Shown here piece by piece: positions 8,402-55,620 of a stretch of 64,000 bases of DNA. How positions within the stretch are numbered: position 1 is the first letter of the stretch; every line of letters begins with the position of its first letter. Position numbers and translations under genes: made by a program. The notes below the pieces were generated by a model. That model worked only from the letters and a program-made list of their open reading frames with translations. It searched no databases and was not told the origin of the DNA. Where the stretch lies: positions 1,480,001-1,544,000 of the forward strand of contig NZ_CP024123.1 of assembly GCF_002736105.1 (NCBI RefSeq), read 5' to 3'. Source of the DNA: Solibacillus sp. R5-41 (GTDB taxonomy: Bacteria > Bacillota > Bacilli > Bacillales_A > Planococcaceae).

Positions 8402-8712
8402 GGCTGGTTAAGCACTTGAGTCACACAGCTTTGTTGTCACAAATCTGTACTGAATCATCTTTGTGCTAGGCCAGCCTATGTGTACGTTGGGCCTACTGAA
8501 ACCATCCGCATATAGTACACTACTAAAGTGAGAGACGGCGGATTCATTGATATTTTTCTTCTCCACGTGCCTCACCATGGGATGTTTTTCATTCCGCTAT
8601 AAAGTAGCACTTCTGTTTTAATAACAGAAACAATCTAATATATAACTTGAACACTTAAATTTTGATTTATAATTGGCCCCGCGGAAAGCGTCCGGACCGG
8701 AATGGAAATCAC
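8402..8712 (-). repeat. Dispersed intergenic repeat family C, eroded copy 1
   Basis: Two blocks match, in inverted orientation, the copy at 41262-41508: 8402-8462 (GTCACACAGCTTTGTTGT core) and 8677-8712 (CGCGGAAAGC ... CCGGAATGGAAATCA). Part of the AT-rich linker (TTGAACA near 8648) also matches. The order of blocks is the same in both copies. Sequences of the GCGGAAAGC...GGAAATCA type are widespread between genes in Bacillaceae. The 8224-8947 gap holds no gene that I can support. Confidence 0.75.
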
Positions 8713-8947
8713 TCCTCCTTGTTATGGTAAACATCTAAAAGGAGCATTTTTTAGTTTAACTCATAGAGAGAGGTCCTATGAGACCATGCGAATGTATTAC
8801 AAGGACCGATTTGAATGTTTTACCAAAACGAACGTAATTAAAAATCATCATATGCGGTAGCTTAATGGATGAGAACTTGCTACTTTCATAAGGCTATTTT
8901 GATTTTTCCATCTGATATAATATAGGAATATAAAGGAGTTGTCATTT

Positions 8948-9283: not shown

Positions 9284-9358
9284 TTTTTATACAAATAAAA
9301 CATTTAAAGGAAATAATGATACAATTATTTGGAACATGTTGATACGAGGGGGACGTTC

Positions 9359-9742
9359 ATGAAACTTGCTATGAAATATATCATTCTTTATGTAAATGAT
9401 TTCGAAAAAACAATCCATTTTTATCGCGACATTTTAGCTTTACCGATAAAAATGGAGCAAGGAACGTATGTGGAATTTGATACGGGTGCTACAACTTTAT
9501 CTGTGAATACGCGAGAATCTGTCAAAGAAGAAATTGGATTAGATGTGCCCGACACTATTGTAAAAATGCAAACTTTTGAAATTGGATTTGTTGTAGAAGA
9601 TGTGGAAGGGACTATCGAGAATTTACGAAATCAAGGTGTCCCAATCATTAAAGAGCCTGCGAAAAAGCCTTGGGGACAAACTGTGGCATACGTTGCAGAT
9701 CCGGATGGCCATTATATTGAAATATGCACAGCCATTGAATAA
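9359..9742 (+). CDS. VOC (glyoxalase/bleomycin resistance/dioxygenase) superfamily protein
   Basis: The product has 127 residues. The beta-alpha-beta-beta-beta modules are visible: [24 protein letters not shown] at the start and [18 protein letters not shown] in the second half. It ends with the typical [14 protein letters not shown], which holds a metal-site glutamate. Single-pair VOC proteins of this size include antibiotic-binding proteins and small lyases, so the substrate is undetermined. The ATG at 9359 is preceded by GAGGGGG at 9346-9352. An upstream in-frame start at 9329 has no ribosome site. Confidence 0.85.
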
Positions 9743-9810
9743 CTTGTATCAGCAAAATTCCCCTACTTCTATAATTGGGTGGGAATACTAAATATGCAAT
9801 TATATTCAGA

Positions 9811-9994
9811 GGAGTTCAAACCCTAGCTGAATCAGAGGAACTCAAGCTAAGAACGCCGCATCGTGCGGCAACGCCTGAGTGACCAACATCGTGTTGGCCC
9901 AATGCCCCGGCGGATGTCACAGATTTTTAAGGGGAGTTTTTCGAGCGAGCTCGAAAAAAATCTGGACACAATTACGCTAAGGCGTAATTGATTG
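9811..9994 (+). repeat. Structured ~185-bp dispersed repeat, copy A
   Basis: This segment is about 90% identical by eye to the reverse complement of 13896-14080. It contains successive hairpins: GCCGCA/TGCGGC (9855-9869), CCAACA/TGTTGG (9883-9897), TTTTTCGAG/CTCGAAAAA (about 9937-9958) and CAATTACGC/GCGTAATTG (9969-9990). Stems are conserved between the copies while loops change (CGAG against AGAA in the third). No open reading frame explains it. It could be a structured RNA, a non-autonomous mobile element or a REP-like element. Confidence 0.8.
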
Positions 9995-10007
9995 TAGCTG
10001 TAACAAG

Positions 10008-10050
10008 CAAAAAATCCACTCGTACAGCTTATGTACATGGTGGATTTTTG
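10008..10050. terminator. Hairpin downstream of the MFS exporter gene
   Basis: The arms CAAAAAATCCAC and GTGGATTTTTG flank a GTAC...GTAC inner stem. It lies just beyond the stop of the minus-strand MFS gene and has T-runs on both sides. Confidence 0.65.
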
Positions 10051-10063
10051 CGTCCTATATCAT

Positions 10064-11356
10064 TTATTCTAAAACCTCAAGTACTTGTTCTGCTACTTGT
10101 TTTTTTAATTCTGGGTGTGCCATTTCAATAATTGAACGTCGCAGTAATGTTAAAACAATCATGACTAAAATGCTCCCGCTAACAAGTAAAATGTACTGAG
10201 CTGGGATAATATCATATAAAATCCCGAAAATTAGTGTACCGATAGGCATCATGCTCATGGCCATCATTTCAACAATTCCGAAAACGCGACCACGAAATTC
10301 CTCTTCAATTGAAGTTTGTAATATGACCCCAAGTGGCGTATTCGTTATAACACCAAGAGCACCAAATAGAAACATTAAGGTGAAGTAATATATGAAATTC
10401 ATGGTAGCTGAAAATTGAACTAATAAAGGTAAGGCAGCGAAAAGGACTAATATTGCCATGAGCAAAGTCGAGCGTTTCACAAGCAATAATGGAAATTTTA
10501 CACTTGAACGTGTAGTAAAGTAAATCGCCATTATAAGCATACCAATTGCCGTACCTGCTTCAACAAAACCAATCAGTTTTGGTTCCAACTGTAAAATTGT
10601 TAGCAAAATATAACCACCGCCAATATTCATACAAGTAAAGAATAAATTTAACCATAGCGCTGTCCATAATATTGAACGAATGACGCGCTTTTTATTGACA
10701 TAAGCAAATCCAGCTTTAAGACTTTTAAGCATCGTTTCTTTTTCAGCAGGTGCATTTGTCACTTTTTTATATAATGTAAAATTCATTGTAGATTCCAGTA
10801 TAAGGGTAATAATTGAAGCGATAATAAAAATAACTAAAAAGATTTTCATTGAAGCAAATCCAAATAACATACCACCAAAAACTGGCCCGCCGATCCCTGA
10901 AAGAGAGTAGGATAATTGATTAAAACTCATTGCTTTTTGAAGGCGTTCCCCATCCACTAAATTGGCAATGGATGCTGAGAAAGAAACACTTGTAAACGTA
11001 CTAAAAATACTATTAAAAAATGTCGCCATATAAATCGCCATTAAAGATAATTCAACCATGTGCGTGTAAAGGAGTAATACACTTACCGATAAGACAACCC
11101 CAGCTTGCCCTCCAAGAACTAACCATTTCCGAGGCATCCGGTCTCCAAGTAACCCAGCAATTGGTGAAATAATTGTTCGTGGCAAAATACTGAGTAAAAT
11201 ATTTGTTGCGAAGCTTAAGGATGAGCCTGTTAAAGAAAGAATATACATACTAATCCCAAACGCATAAACACCTGATCCGAGTGAACCAATCATTTTACTT
11301 ATTAAGAAAGTGTATAAATGATACGTCGCTTTTTTATGCATTAATTGTTCATTCAT
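10064..11356 (-). CDS. MFS transporter, exporter type
   Basis: The product has 430 residues and about twelve membrane helices. The loop 2-3 motif appears as GLLGDRMPRKWLV, and the later ASIANLVDGERLQKAMSFNQLSYSLSGIGGPVFGG is characteristic of the MFS_3/enterobactin-exporter-like group. GFAYVNKKRVIRSIL marks the central loop. It probably exports a drug or metabolite. It is divergent from the XRE/TPR regulator at 11552, with AT-rich repeated boxes between them, so regulation by that neighbour is likely (inference). Confidence 0.88.
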   Translation of the reverse strand: MNEQLMHKKATYHLYTFLISKMIGSLGSGVYAFGISMYILSLTGSSLSFATNILLSILPRTIISPIAGLLGDRMPRKWLVLGGQAGVVLSVSVLLLYTHMVELSLMAIYMATFFNSIFSTFTSVSFSASIANLVDGERLQKAMSFNQLSYSLSGIGGPVFGGMLFGFASMKIFLVIFIIASIITLILESTMNFTLYKKVTNAPAEKETMLKSLKAGFAYVNKKRVIRSILWTALWLNLFFTCMNIGGGYILLTILQLEPKLIGFVEAGTAIGMLIMAIYFTTRSSVKFPLLLVKRSTLLMAILVLFAALPLLVQFSATMNFIYYFTLMFLFGALGVITNTPLGVILQTSIEEEFRGRVFGIVEMMAMSMMPIGTLIFGILYDIIPAQYILLVSGSILVMIVLTLLRRSIIEMAHPELKKQVAEQVLEVLE

Positions 11357-11373
11357 AAAATCCTAACCCCTTT

Positions 11374-11494
11374 GTTTAATTTGATTAAACTTATAATAAA
11401 CCATAAAAATGGGAATTGCAATATAAAAGTTTAATTAAATTAAATTCTCTTAAATTTAATTTGTTTTATACTTTATTTTTGTTTAATTAAATTT
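11374..11494. promoter_or_regulatory. Repeated GTTTAATT boxes in the divergent MFS/XRE promoter region
   Basis: A perfect 7-3-7 inverted repeat (GTTTAAT-TTG-ATTAAAC) lies at 11374-11390. The element GTTTAATTAAATT occurs at 11430-11442 and again at 11481-11493. All three fall between the divergent MFS and regulator genes, which suggests operator sites for the XRE/TPR regulator. The boxes are seen; the binding is inferred. Confidence 0.55.
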
Positions 11495-11551
11495 AAAAAA
11501 ATTCCTTTAATCACTTAGATTTGGTACACTTGACTGTAATGAGGTGATAAT

Positions 11552-12805
11552 ATGTTAAATATCGGTACAAAAATAAAAGAATTACGAAAAGAAAGAAAGC
11601 TGACGTTGGCACAAGTTGCAGGGGATCGTTTATCAAAAGGCATGCTCAGTTTAATTGAAAATGGAAAAGCACAACCTTCAATGGAAAGCTTGCAGCACAT
11701 TGCGAATCAATTAGATATTGGGGTTTCAGAATTAATGCAGGGAAAAGATGATGAAAAAATCCGCTCCCTTTTTCTTGAAGTTGAACAATTGCGTGCCCAA
11801 TTAAATAAGGAATTTAATAAAACGAAATACAATGAAAAATGCGAGGAAATCCTTCATTTAATTGAACCGCTTGTTGAAGAGGACATGTTAAATGGCAGTA
11901 ATTATGAGGAAGTACGTTTAGTTGAAATTTATTCGAGGGTGCGATATTTACTAAAAATAGATACGTCGATCACTCCATTTTTAAACGTCATAAAAATGTA
12001 TGAGCAAATCCATGCCTATTCCAAAATAATAAGTGGCTATTGTCGAATTTGCGCCATTAAATTTGAGCAACATTTATACGAAGAAGCGCTAGACTATTTA
12101 TTAGAAGGGGAAAAGTATATAACTCGCTATGAAGGGTTAATTGATGAGTTAGAAAAGCTTGATTTATATTACAATATTACCGTAGTTTATTCCGCATTAA
12201 ACAATGAACAAAAAACGGAACAATATTTAGAAAAGGCTTTGAAAATTGCAAAAGAAAAGAAAATTTTATATCGCTTAAATGATTTTTATCGTTTCTTATT
12301 TGTTATTCATTGTTCAAAAGGGGATGCCGAAAAATCTCGTTACTATTTGAAAAAAATAAGCGCGTTTACTGAAATTTTAGAGGAACCGGCAGAAGCTGTT
12401 ATTGAACAATTATTGAACTTGGTTTATATGAATCAAATTGAGAAAGACTACGAGATGGTAATACGTTTAAAGATGGAAGAAACGCCAATAACTGAAGAAT
12501 ATTTAAGCCCATTAAAGGTTTTCCTCCATGGGGAGTATGCTTATGCTTACTGGCATTTGAAACAGCATGACGAGGCAAAAAAAGAATTGGAAACACTAAA
12601 GCTCACTGAAATTCATCATCATCCAATCGACTTAGTGAGAATTTATCGAGCCTTTGCGATTCGTGCCTTATGCTATCTTCAAGAAGGTGACATTGAAAAC
12701 GCCAAAAGAGATATATTATATGCGGTGGATGGCTGCAAAGATTTTAGTGAAACACCGGAAAAACGATTTATTTTGGATGCGTATGAGGAAGTTTTAGGGA
12801 AATAG
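11552..12805 (+). CDS. XRE-family regulator with TPR-like C-terminal domain
   Basis: The product has 417 residues. Residues 5-60 form a Cro/CI helix-turn-helix (IKELRKERKLTLAQVAGDRLSKGMLSLIENGKAQPS). The remaining ~350 residues are helical repeats of TPR type (EEALDYLLEGEKYITRYEGL, EQYLEKALKIAKEKKILYRL, KRDILYAVDGCKDF). This is the architecture of Rgg/PlcR-like regulators, some of which sense peptides, and of similar regulators beside exporters. AGGTGA precedes the ATG. The divergent MFS gene is the likely target. No small peptide gene was found next to it. Confidence 0.87.
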   Translation: MLNIGTKIKELRKERKLTLAQVAGDRLSKGMLSLIENGKAQPSMESLQHIANQLDIGVSELMQGKDDEKIRSLFLEVEQLRAQLNKEFNKTKYNEKCEEILHLIEPLVEEDMLNGSNYEEVRLVEIYSRVRYLLKIDTSITPFLNVIKMYEQIHAYSKIISGYCRICAIKFEQHLYEEALDYLLEGEKYITRYEGLIDELEKLDLYYNITVVYSALNNEQKTEQYLEKALKIAKEKKILYRLNDFYRFLFVIHCSKGDAEKSRYYLKKISAFTEILEEPAEAVIEQLLNLVYMNQIEKDYEMVIRLKMEETPITEEYLSPLKVFLHGEYAYAYWHLKQHDEAKKELETLKLTEIHHHPIDLVRIYRAFAIRALCYLQEGDIENAKRDILYAVDGCKDFSETPEKRFILDAYEEVLGK

Positions 12806-12868
12806 CAGTAAAAAGGAATTAGTATGAACTAAATGGTTGGAATGATGTAATAAAGCAATTCTTACATT

Positions 12869-13047
12869 TTACCCAAAATATTCATAATTTGAAATCATTT
12901 GTGCTTTTTGAAGTGTCAAAACTTGCTCAAAGTTCGAAAATTCTTCCTCACTTGAATATAGATCTGTACCTAATAAATATGACTTAGCAAGAAAACGGAG
13001 GTTGGTCGATCAAATTATAAGTATCTTTACTCTCCTTTGATTTAGTG
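12869..13047 (-). pseudogene. Remnant of a protein-coding gene (C-terminal fragment, frameshifted)
   Basis: On the minus strand one frame reads LAKSYLLGTDLYSSEEEF and continues to a TAA at 12871-12869. The upstream part (DTYNLIDQPPF) is in another frame. No start codon or ribosome site is present, so this looks like the eroded end of a gene. The family is not recognised. The remainder of the 12806-13308 gap shows only a terminator. Confidence 0.35.
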
Positions 13048-13116
13048 GCGCTTTAGTCGATAAAGGCACAATAAGATAACTCTTTTACGTTTTTTTATAT
13101 TTAATTTAACAATCTA

Positions 13117-13152
13117 GGCGCTTAGATCTAATAGATCAAGCGTCTTTTTTTG
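13117..13152 (+). terminator. Rho-independent terminator
   Basis: A stem GGCGCTTAGATCT/AGATCAAGCGTC with one bulged base is followed by seven T residues. It lies between the XRE/TPR gene and the XRE-cupin gene. Confidence 0.75.
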
Positions 13153-13308
13153 TGCCAGCTTGTGAAATTTTTAAGGACTGTCCTTGAGAGAATAGATGAT
13201 TACGTAAAATAAATAATTTTCATATCGATGAAATTATTTCATAATATGTTGCTTATAGCTATAATATATACTATATTATTCACAATAGTGAAAAATCGGG
13301 GTGAAGTG

Positions 13309-13890
13309 ATGAATATAGGGATGGAAATAAAAAAATTGAGGACTGAAAAAGGAATTACTTTGAAAGAGTTAAGTGAAAAAAGCGAACTGTCTGTTGGATT
13401 TCTGTCTCAATTAGAAAGGGGTCTTACTACCATAGCAGTGGATTCACTTGAAAAACTAGCTGATATTTTGGAAGTACATGTAACACATTTTTTTGAATAC
13501 CCTATTAAAAAGAAATTTATGGTTTTGAGAAGTTATGACCAAGAAATAATGGATTTAGTAGAAGGTGGTTTTATTAAGTATAGTTTAAGTGCAAATTTGG
13601 AAAATAAACAACTTGTTCCAAGACTTATAGAAATTCTTCCTCAAAGGAAGGATGAAGAAATATTATCCTACAAGCATGAGGGAGAAGAGTTCATTTATGT
13701 TCTAGAGGGTATATTAACAGTTTACATAAATGGTAAGAGGCATGAAGTATATCCTGGTGACAGTGTTCATATGGAATCAAATATTGCCCACAATTGGGCT
13801 AATTATACGAACAAAAAGGTCAAGCTTATAGCTGTTAATACGCCTAATTATATCTACAATAGTAGGTTTTATACTAAAGATACTGATTAG
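13309..13890 (+). CDS. XRE-cupin transcriptional regulator
   Basis: The product has 193 residues. The HTH spans residues 5-60 (IKKLRTEKGITLKELSEKSELSVGFLSQLERG). A cupin_2 domain fills the C-terminus (HEGEEFIYVLEGILTVYING ... YPGDSVHMESNIAHNWANY). This two-domain design is typical of regulators of amine, amino-acid or peptide catabolism, such as PuuR-like proteins. The ATG at 13309 has GGGGTGAAG before it; the longer reading from 13228 has no ribosome site. The EutH-like transporter and aminopeptidase follow after a repeat element and are its most likely targets (inference). Confidence 0.88.
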   Translation: MNIGMEIKKLRTEKGITLKELSEKSELSVGFLSQLERGLTTIAVDSLEKLADILEVHVTHFFEYPIKKKFMVLRSYDQEIMDLVEGGFIKYSLSANLENKQLVPRLIEILPQRKDEEILSYKHEGEEFIYVLEGILTVYINGKRHEVYPGDSVHMESNIAHNWANYTNKKVKLIAVNTPNYIYNSRFYTKDTD

Positions 13891-13895
13891 TAAAG

Positions 13896-14080
13896 ACAAT
13901 CAATTACGCCTCGCCGTAATTGCGTCCAGATTTTTTCGAGTTCTCTCGAAAAGCTCCTTTTAAAAATTTGTGACATCCGCCGAGGCATTGGGCCAACACG
14001 ATGTTGGTCACTCAGGCGTTGCCGCACGACGCGGCGTTCTTAGCTTGAGTTCCTCTGATTCAGCCGGGGTTTGAACCCCC
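13896..14080 (-). repeat. Structured ~185-bp dispersed repeat, copy B (inverted relative to A)
   Basis: This is the second copy of the hairpin-rich element at 9811-9994, in opposite orientation. Its first stem reads GCCGCG/TGCGGC, so the A-T pair of copy A is a G-T pair here. Its 14061-14076 end adds a CCGGGGTTTGAACCCC hairpin that resembles a tRNA T-arm. It begins 6 bp after the stop of the XRE-cupin gene and lies 60 bp before the EutH-like gene. Confidence 0.8.
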
Positions 14081-14144
14081 ATATATAGAAGTAAGGGACT
14101 ACTGCTGAAACAAGTAAAAAAGTAAATAGAAAGTGATAATAAAA

Positions 14145-21973: not shown

Positions 21974-22107
21974 AGCAAAACATCCTTTTCTTATACTTAT
22001 AATTAACATAGCGTATGTATTTTTGAATGAGATTGCTTGTATGAAACAACTAATTCTAATTGAAATTTAATATGAAAATTAATTAATATAAATCTCACTT
22101 AAATTAG

Positions 22108-22146
22108 TTACGGTGAACCGTACCATAAGTAAGGCGGTTTTTTCTG
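22108..22146 (+). repeat. GEPYHK-stop repeat (family D), copy 1
   Basis: The sequence TACGGTGAACCGTACCATAA, followed by GTAAGGCGGTTTTTTCTG, recurs with few changes at 23680-23720 and 47155-47195. One frame reads YGEPYHK then stop. The AACCG ... CGGTTTTTT arms also form a weak terminator-like hairpin. Confidence 0.7.
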
Positions 22147-23633: not shown

Positions 23634-23679
23634 GCATTACAATTAAAGCAATATTTAATGCAAACTTCATTTTGATATA

Positions 23680-23720
23680 TTACGGAGAACCGTATCATAA
23701 GTAAATGAGGGGTTTTTCTG
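23680..23720 (+). repeat. GEPYHK-stop repeat (family D), copy 2
   Basis: The core TACGGAGAACCGTATCATAA matches 22109-22128 with two substitutions and is followed by a similar G-run then TTTTTCTG. The local frame reads ILIYYGEPYHK then stop, without a start codon nearby. Confidence 0.7.
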
Positions 23721-41261: not shown

Positions 41262-41508
41262 GTTGATTTCCATTCTGGTCCGGAGCTTTCCGCGGGCACG
41301 GCTCCAACTAACTTGTTTCGAGATTCATCTCGAAACAAGTGGATTTTCCGCTCGTGCTGTTCCCGCAGGAGTAGCCTCCCTCATTCTAATAAACTCCTTC
41401 TGTTCAAGTTTATACCAATATAATCCCTAATTATTTTCTTCCTAATAATAAAAGATGAGTCGTACAGATTTGTACAACAAAGCTGTGTGACTCATGTGCT
41501 TAGCCAGA
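41262..41508 (+). repeat. Dispersed intergenic repeat family C, longer copy 2
   Basis: The element begins GTTGATTTCCATTCTGGTCC, continues with TTTCCGCGGGCACGGCT, an internal 12-bp hairpin (CTTGTTTCGAGA/TCTCGAAACAAG at 41312-41339) and CTCGTGCTGTTCCCGCAGGA, and ends with CAACAAAGCTGTGTGACTCA. First and last blocks are shared, inverted, with 8402-8712. The CCGCGGGCACGG...CTCGTGCTGTTCCCGC pattern is known from intergenic regions of many Bacillales. There is no gene in the 41183-41726 gap. Confidence 0.8.
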
Positions 41509-47003: not shown

Positions 47004-47154
47004 TGGTATTTATATTATGAGGAAAAAAGATAGGGCTTGAAGGCATTACTGTTGGTGGTGAAACGATACGAGAGCACTTGAACTAGTTGCGTAGGAAGTT
47101 GAATCTTCGTTAGACCTTTATTTAAATGTTGTGTAAAAACCGCATGTAGAACCA

Positions 47155-47195
47155 TAACGTTGAACCGTATCATTAGTAAGTGAGGTTTTCCCAGT
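47155..47195 (+). repeat. GEPYHK-stop repeat (family D), copy 3
   Basis: TTGAACCGTATCATTAGTAA with the following GTGAGGTTTTCCC matches the copies at 22108 and 23680. The reading frame is more eroded (VEPYH then stop). Confidence 0.6.
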
Positions 47196-54911: not shown

Positions 54912-55223
54912 GTTGGATATTAGTTGAAACGTATAAAATATTATTTTTAGCAAACGCAATGATTAGGAGTAGTAAAAGTTAATTATTCGGTTTAGAGAGC
55001 TGCGGGTTGGTGCAACGCAGTCCAATAATACTTCGAACTTACCTAGGAGTGGTAATGTAAAAAGAATGGATTGACGATTCTATTTATATTAACGATTAAC
55101 CTTCGTTATAAGGTTTTTAAGCAGGGTTCATGAAGGACCAATTAGAGTGGTACCGCGGTTTGCTAAAGGCATGTCGTCTCTTTTTTCATTTGATAATGAT
55201 GGAAGAGACGACATGCTTTTTTT
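54912..55223 (+). ncRNA. T-box riboswitch 1
   Basis: Stem I elements include GAGCTGCGGGTTGGTGCAAC near 55000. The invariant T-box AGAGTGGTACCGCG lies at 55144-55157. A terminator follows (GCATGTCGTCTC/GAGACGACATGC, then seven T). T-boxes bind uncharged tRNA and open the terminator. The specifier region reads GAACTTACC; the two most natural readings (CTT or TTA) are leucine codons, but the codon is not certain. No gene lies between this leader and the second one. Confidence 0.92.
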
Positions 55224-55317: not shown

Positions 55318-55620
55318 GTAGGATAATTTTAATAATAATATTTAGGAAACGCAATGAGTAGGAGTAGTAAAAGTTAATTATTCGGTTAAGAGAGCTGCGG
55401 GTTGGTGTAACGCAGTCCAATAATACTTTGAACTTACCTAGGAGTGGTAATGCAGTTAGAATGGATTGACGATTCTTTTTGCATTAACGATTAACCTTCG
55501 TTACAAGGTTTTTAAGTAGGGTTCATAAAGGACCAATTAGAGTGGTACCGCGGTTTGCTAAAGGCATATCGTCTCTTTTTTCATTTGATAATGATGGAAG
55601 AGACGATATGCCTTTTTTTA
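55318..55620 (+). ncRNA. T-box riboswitch 2 (upstream of amino-acid permease)
   Basis: This is nearly identical to leader 1 across stem I, the GAACTTACC specifier region and the AGAGTGGTACCGCG box (55539-55552). The terminator stem reads GCATATCGTCTC/GAGACGATATGC; compared with leader 1, a G-C pair has become A-T with both bases changed. It directly precedes the permease gene by 59 bp. Confidence 0.93.

What the first reader, a model, noticed from the sequence alone, without database searches (positions are those of the whole stretch)
9811..14080. Pair of ~185-bp hairpin-rich elements in inverted orientation flanking an exporter/regulator block
Copies A (9811-9994) and B (13896-14080) are about 90% identical by eye and carry four hairpins in the same order. 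Differences fall mostly in loops (CGAG against AGAA) or keep pairing (A-T to G-T in the GCCGC stem), as expected for a selected RNA or DNA structure. No frame codes for protein and no known riboswitch class is recognised. Each copy lies just after a gene stop. They could be a new structured RNA, an omega-RNA-like or IS200/IS605-type non-autonomous element, or a REP-like element. As inverted repeats they could also invert or mobilise the 4-kb MFS/XRE/XRE-cupin block.
Basis: partly seen in the sequence, partly recalled or inferred. Interest (0 to 1): 0.78.

Follow-up and report, generated by a model that had tools for sequence, protein, structure and literature searches.

The report
BOX-like modular mobile repeat carrying Bacillaceae-1
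The two hairpin-rich repeats are copies of a short mobile DNA element that has spread through this bacterium's genome; it is built from swappable modules, one of which is a catalogued but unexplained 'small RNA', and it often sits exactly behind a gene's stop codon.

Summary
The ~90% identical inverted pair is real, but its core occurs at 103 places in this genome. Both copies hold a full-length match to Rfam RF01690 'Bacillaceae-1' (70.1 and 71.0 bits, cut-off 35), so this is not a new RNA. The element is longer than reported: hairpins X + optional core + hairpins Y, about 250 nt. Core-less copies exist; the core also sits in an unrelated palindromic repeat, itself found with and without it; at one orthologous site only one of two species has the core. 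Core number ranges 8-107 in 12 congeners. In 13 of 27 syntenic loci the relative G003 is empty; copy B is absent from four relatives. 19 of 50 elements with an intact 5' end begin exactly after an in-frame TAA stop, against 78 of 2075 background sites; copy A is one, and relatives have that TAA without the element. Stems covary between subfamilies, but decaying copies show no G-U preference in this genus. Closest analogue: pneumococcal BOX elements. No mobilising enzyme was found. Block inversion is unsupported.

The parts
9329..9742 (+). Glyoxalase-like gene whose TAA stop (9740-9742) is the insertion site of copy A
   Evidence: Pfam Glyoxalase_2 2.9e-33; orthologues in G010 and G011 end GAATAA, in G022 GATTAA, without an element behind them
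9740..9993 (+). Copy A, whole element X-core-Y, the shared TAA included
   Evidence: HMM positions 2-255, 233.5 bits
9743..9831 (+). Copy A, X module (CTTG .. CTGAA)
   Evidence: aligned copies; HMM positions 1-95
9831..9897 (+). Copy A, Bacillaceae-1 core (RF01690, model 1-67)
   Evidence: 70.1 bits, gathering score 35
9901..9993 (+). Copy A, Y module (CAGATTTTT..AAAATCTG hairpin and terminal CAATTACGC..GCGTAATTG hairpin)
   Evidence: model R1, 116.3 bits; fold
13898..14118 (-). Copy B, whole element with an internal deletion in X
   Evidence: HMM positions 1-255, 193.4 bits; absent at the orthologous site of G002, G003, G021, G023
13993..14059 (-). Copy B, Bacillaceae-1 core
   Evidence: 71.0 bits
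13898..13991 (-). Copy B, Y module
   Evidence: alignment A1
41262..41371 (-). Core-less copy of a second backbone (type II palindrome) that elsewhere in this genome carries the same core
   Evidence: 110-nt segment without core; five core-bearing segments of 145-174 nt in this genome

Best explanation
Copies A and B are two separate insertions of a non-autonomous, modular, dispersed repeat that works like the BOX elements of pneumococcus. It consists of a 5' hairpin module X, an optional Bacillaceae-1 core (in some elements with a second, partial core in tandem) and a 3' two-hairpin module Y. It spread copy by copy (shown by empty sites in relatives), very often directly behind a TAA stop codon (shown), through an enzyme acting in trans that was not identified (inferred). 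The core is a cassette, present or absent in the same backbone and shared by unrelated hairpin repeats (shown), probably exchanged by recombination between repeats (inferred). Its stems stay paired in the lineages that spread (shown), while single copies decay (supported for this genus). If co-transcribed, as expected for copy A between the glyoxalase stop and a terminator-like hairpin near 10008-10051 (seen by eye), the hairpins would form a structured 3' UTR that may change mRNA stability (inferred, untested).
For: Empty sites: 13 of 27 syntenic loci have 30 or fewer bases between the flanks in G003; copy B empty in four relatives; copy A absent behind the same stop in three orthologues. Modules: X-Y without core; four elements with a second partial core; core present in G000 and absent in G003 at one orthologous element; type II with and without core; further backbones in named Bacillales. 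Stop codons: 19 of 50 against 78 of 2075 background sites (p 8e-15), and 19 at the stop against 4 in the next 60 nt (null 183:382, p 1e-6). Pairing: 92.6% of cells paired, 16 of 17 pairs with two-sided changes, 0 of 500 shuffles as high. Decay: G-T 53 and A-C 62 in 89 distinct cores; leading-strand copies 43:35, lagging 10:25, p 0.014. Precedent: PMC3049150.
Against: No mobilising enzyme found: Y1 absent in G000 and G002; reverse transcriptase absent in G002 and G021; IS110 also in low-copy genomes. Unlike BOX, no terminal inverted repeat was seen by eye, and target duplication is unresolved because the relatives are only about 85-90% identical. In 100 distinct cores from other Bacillales A-C exceeds G-T 82:35 (12 of 17 pairs counted, relatedness not controlled), and the core folds better on the reverse strand, so a functional RNA on that strand is possible. 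The stop-codon share is lower in G003, 5 of 37 elements with a putative 5' end. In the one site that differs by the core, X differs too, so direction and mechanism of the change are unknown. Of the 14 other syntenic loci, G003 has an element in at least three (L128, L022, L151). No expression data.
Confidence: 0.8

Rival explanations
1. A functional small RNA gene family (as Rfam types it), transcribed from many loci, for example a protein sponge; CsrA binding to the reverse strand has been proposed in print.
For: Strong covariation; better fold on the reverse strand; A-C over G-T 82:35 in other Bacillales; CsrA motif match on the reverse complement reported in PMC4333381 (passages).
Against: Number of copies 8-107 between congeners; empty sites; no G-U preference in this genus. 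A GGA on the reverse strand needs TCC in the loop on this strand; the 15 commonest loop combinations include only 16 of 99 cores with TCC in both loops.
Confidence: 0.12
2. A non-autonomous derivative of an IS200/IS605-type (Y1, HUH) element: hairpin ends, no terminal inverted repeats, a fixed 5' target motif (TAA), mobilised by a transposase since lost. This is a sub-case of the best explanation, naming the enzyme.
For: TTAA, CTAA or ATAA precedes the element in 43 of 50; no complementary ends by eye; some junctions fit insertion without duplication, by eye.
Against: No Y1 domain in G000 or G002; six Y1 loci of G003, G004 and G005 have no match to the element HMM.
Confidence: 0.25
3. Terminators or attenuators kept by selection behind genes.
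For: Position directly behind stop codons; some copies follow a hairpin with a T-run, by eye (L014, L015, L016).
Against: 31 of 50 are not at a stop codon; 37 of 100 placed cores have no co-oriented gene on their 5' side; 13 of 27 compared loci are empty in G003.
Confidence: 0.1
4. Copies A and B are the ends of a mobile or invertible 4-kb unit.
For: Inverted orientation and similarity.
Against: G003 has the block in the same order and orientation without B; in G002, G021 and G023 its two parts are more than 1 Mb apart. Four other opposite-strand pairs of cores lie within 2 kb of each other in this genome, so such pairs are not special.
Confidence: 0.02

Closest known systems
Rfam RF01690 Bacillaceae-1 (Weinberg et al. 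2010, PMC2864571, passages seen)
   Same: The 67-nt core matches over the full model in both copies.
   Different: The family is typed as a stand-alone sRNA and listed without a function; here it is an optional module of dispersed repeats of about 250 nt and of other backbones.
BOX elements of Streptococcus pneumoniae and S. suis (PMC3049150, sections 5, 7, 9, 10 read)
   Same: Non-coding, hairpin-forming, 125 BOX in one genome; modular, middle module absent, single or repeated; in S. suis the same boxB lies between two different pairs of outer modules; in 36 CDSs the BOX repeat encodes the stop codon without strong evidence of truncation.
   Different: BOX has terminal inverted repeats and target duplications; the first was not seen here and the second is unresolved. 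The core here occurs across many Bacillales genera. Sequence relation to boxA/B/C not tested.
REP elements with RAYT (Y1 transposase)
   Same: Dispersed extragenic hairpins.
   Different: Longer, several modules, no Y1 transposase in this genome. REP features are recalled; PMC3733652 was seen only in a listing.
bcr1-bcr18 repeats of the Bacillus cereus group (PMC3446304, passages) and the stem-loop families Bhal-1, Bhal-2, Bant-1 (PMC2267715, passages)
   Same: Families of intergenic repeats in Bacillus, several with conserved stem-loops; bcr elements found in UTRs.
   Different: Their sequences were not compared here, so an overlap with the present family is not excluded.

Membership tests
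Rfam RF01690 Bacillaceae-1 | Covariance-model score above the gathering cut-off over the full model | tested here: met
   71.0 and 70.1 bits against 35, model 1-67
BOX-like modular repeat (works like) | Outer modules with an optional, repeatable middle module | tested here: met
   core absent, single, or single plus partial between X and Y
BOX-like modular repeat (works like) | Same middle module between different outer modules | tested here: met
   type II backbone with and without core; other backbones
BOX elements proper | Terminal inverted repeats | tested here: not met
   ends AACTTG.. and ..GTAATTGA are not complementary; judged by eye from aligned copies
BOX elements proper | Target-site duplication | tested here: inconclusive
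   17 junctions printed against G003; divergence too high to call
BOX elements proper | Sequence homology to boxA, boxB or boxC | not tested
   no BOX sequences were compared
REP/RAYT | Y1 (RAYT) transposase in the genome | tested here: not met
   PF01797: 0 in G000 and G002; G003 has one with an internal stop
IS200/IS605 derivative | Ends shared with an autonomous Y1 element | tested here: not met
   element HMM has no match in six Y1 loci of G003, G004, G005; other genomes of the genus not searched for Y1
Dedicated sRNA gene | Own transcript from own promoter | not testable with these tools
   no expression data
omega-RNA / TnpB guide RNA | Linked IscB/TnpB gene or matching scaffold | not tested
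   only Pfam of five neighbouring genes was run; none of their matches is a nuclease family

The most novel reading that the evidence does not exclude
The Bacillaceae-1 core is itself a transferable cassette that moves between unrelated hairpin repeats and into rRNA operons across Bacillales, and the repeat that carries it here is inserted by a system that recognises translation stop codons (TAA) rather than any TTAA, giving a mobile element with a built-in safe harbour behind genes.
Probability: 0.2. Interest if true: 0.78.

Novelty: new variant of a known kind. Interest (0 to 1): 0.5.

Why it matters
It recasts an Rfam 'small RNA' of unknown function and uncertain strand as a module of mobile repeats, which explains its erratic copy number. 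It gives Bacillales a counterpart of pneumococcal BOX elements, with the same habit of lying on stop codons, and makes testable whether such elements target stop codons and whether one module serves mobility in unrelated repeats.

Tried and rejected
Inversion of the block: not supported, same order and orientation in G003. New RNA class: rejected by the Rfam match. RAYT/IS200 partner: no Y1 in G000 or G002, no element-like sequence at six Y1 loci elsewhere. Group II or other reverse transcriptase: 0 in high-copy G002 and G021, 1 each in G000 and G003, 7 matches in low-copy G010. IS110: 14 in G000, 3 in G003, 2 each in G002 and G021, but 6 in low-copy G010. Loop-loop pairing and a tRNA T-arm look of hairpin X: considered by eye, not pursued. 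Core before 16S rRNA as the ancestral form in this family: an exact pattern for it matched 0 of 250 genomes (no positive control was run with that pattern), while the core does lie before 16S in L268, L282, L307 and in the 16S-23S spacer in L234, L255. tRNA control for G-U against A-C: 6:0 in 23 tRNAs, small, and tRNAs are not decaying copies. Paper searches for an earlier account of this repeat showed none recognisable in the listings; the library lacks most subscription papers and the supplements of Weinberg 2010 could not be opened, so an earlier account is possible. The association of the motif with rRNA operons is, as I recall, mentioned in public descriptions of the family; I saw no text for it here.

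Full report
Observation. The inverted pair exists at the stated place and is about 90% identical. Both copies hold a full-length match to Rfam RF01690, Bacillaceae-1. Weinberg et al. 2010 (PMC2864571, passages seen) list that motif for Bacillaceae, as RNA 'Y' and cis-regulatory 'n'. [quoted passage not shown] BSGatlas (PMC8208703, one passage) counts 8 in B. subtilis, and a Brevibacillus draft genome paper (PMC5764928, one passage) 10.

Family size. RF01690 matches 103 places in this genome, 99 above the cut-off; 8-107 in 12 congeners and 0 in 8 genomes of other genera of the class. In the family, 112 of 151 sampled genomes (17 of 19 genera) have it, with stricter filters and at most 31 candidates scored per genome; there two further congeners had 3 and 7.

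Anatomy. An HMM built from five full copies finds 119 hits in the fetched own-genome loci (not the whole genome) and splits the 255-nt element into X (1-95), core (96-162) and Y (163-255). Copies without the core have a palindromic X (AACTTGATTCAG..CTGAATCAAGTT) running straight into Y; with the core the last part of that palindrome is missing. Four elements (L019, L028, L101, L116) carry a second, partial core. At one orthologous element G000 has the core and G003 does not, with the same flanks and shared rare variants in Y; part of X differs as well. In the same genome a palindromic repeat to which the HMM matches only in the core (type II) occurs with core (five segments of 145-174 nt, plus one with a damaged core) and without (two segments of 110-111 nt, one in this window at 41262-41371). 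Loci from named genera show further backbones around the core.

Mobility. Of 27 own loci whose two flanks align to the fetched 0.8 Mb of G003, 13 have 30 or fewer bases between the flanks there (L147, L014, L019, L007, L028, L011, L005, L155, L003, L040, L032, L131, L153). The other 14 have longer sequence in between: L128 has an element in both genomes, L022 a core-less one in G003, L151 a Y in the opposite orientation; seven (L023, L150, L108, L015, L034, L018, L106) gave no HMM match in G003, though L150 looks by eye like a decayed element; four (L016, L113, L110, L025) were not checked with the HMM. Copy B is missing in G002, G003, G021 and G023. Copy A follows the glyoxalase gene's TAA; the orthologues in G010, G011 and G022 end in TAA at the aligned place without an element.

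Stop codons. Of 50 own-genome HMM hits with an intact 5' end, 19 begin exactly after a TAA that closes an open frame of 80 codons or more, 4 begin within the next 60 nt of such a stop, 13 at 61-600 nt and 14 have none within 600 nt. Among noncoding and stop YTAA sites of the same loci 78 of 2075 are stops; for 300 genes there are 183 HTAA stops against 382 HTAA sites in the next 60 nt. In G003 three checked orthologues have the stop at the same codon, frames read by eye: TAA at L005 and L032, TGA at L025. In G003 itself the share is lower, 5 of 37 elements with a putative 5' end. Genes were called by a simple script, not by an annotation pipeline. Whether this is targeting or survival of harmless insertions is open; the 60-nt comparison favours targeting but does not exclude selection. 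In one pneumococcal genome with 125 BOX elements, 36 CDSs likewise take their stop codon from a BOX repeat without strong evidence of truncation (PMC3049150, sections 5, 7, 9 and 10 read).

Structure. On 67 cores 16 of 17 pairs show two-sided changes, above all 500 shuffles and far above the slid controls. In 89 distinct cores of this genus G-T and A-C mismatches are about equal (53 and 62; the 30 cores from relatives alone gave 0 and 2). In the 71 own cores of exact length the ratio follows replication direction, 43:35 for copies on the leading strand and 10:25 on the lagging (p 0.014), as strand-biased mutation of decaying copies would give. tRNA acceptor stems gave 6 and 0. Against this, 100 distinct cores from other Bacillales give 35 G-T and 82 A-C over 12 of the 17 pairs, and the reverse strand of the core folds better (-26.6 against -20.6 kcal/mol for copy A), so a reverse-strand RNA cannot be excluded.

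Context. 72 of 103 cores are co-oriented with the leading strand, taking the terminus near 2.3 Mb from GC skew of the fetched loci. Of 103, 47 lie in sense between two co-oriented genes, 26 in antisense, 16 between convergent and 11 between divergent genes, and 3 inside called frames. The neighbours of the pair are a glyoxalase-like protein, an MFS transporter, an HTH/TPR protein, an HTH-cupin protein and EutH.

Mechanism. Shown: dispersal, empty sites, modularity, stop-codon position, paired stems. Inferred: transposition in trans by an unknown enzyme, module exchange by recombination, effect on 3' UTRs. Candidates tested: Y1, reverse transcriptase, IS110; none fits the distribution of copies.

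Noticed in passing
window 54950-55184 and 55345-55579 (+): Two T-box leaders in tandem (RF00230, 124.6 and 129 bits) in direct repeats of 93% identity, inside a region with a diverged duplication about 4.8 kb apart (53.3-53.9 kb against 58.2-58.7 kb).
   Followed up: no
window 22090-22138, 23662-23710, 47137-47185: Three copies (69-76% identity to the reference copy) of a 49-nt sequence sharing GAACCGTA[CT]CAT[AT]AGTAA; nature unknown.
   Followed up: no
window 8680-8713: Fragment resembling the end of the type II palindrome (GCGGAAAGCGTCCGGACCGGAATGGAAATCA) without the rest.
   Followed up: partly
L268, L282, L307 (before 16S); L234, L255 (16S-23S spacer): The conserved CGTCCTG stretch of the core lies 55-56 nt before the 16S start, or in the 16S-23S spacer 44 nt before a CTTTGAAAACT box; the exact pattern before 16S was absent from 250 genomes sampled from the window's order.
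   Followed up: partly
own genome, 1.5-2.7 Mb: Only 6 of 103 cores lie in this terminus region, where 13 of the 14 IS110 matches lie.
   Followed up: no
L063 (G002) and L066 (genome not shown in the listing): A core lies inside the Y hairpin itself, in L063 in an element that already has a core in the usual place.
   Followed up: partly
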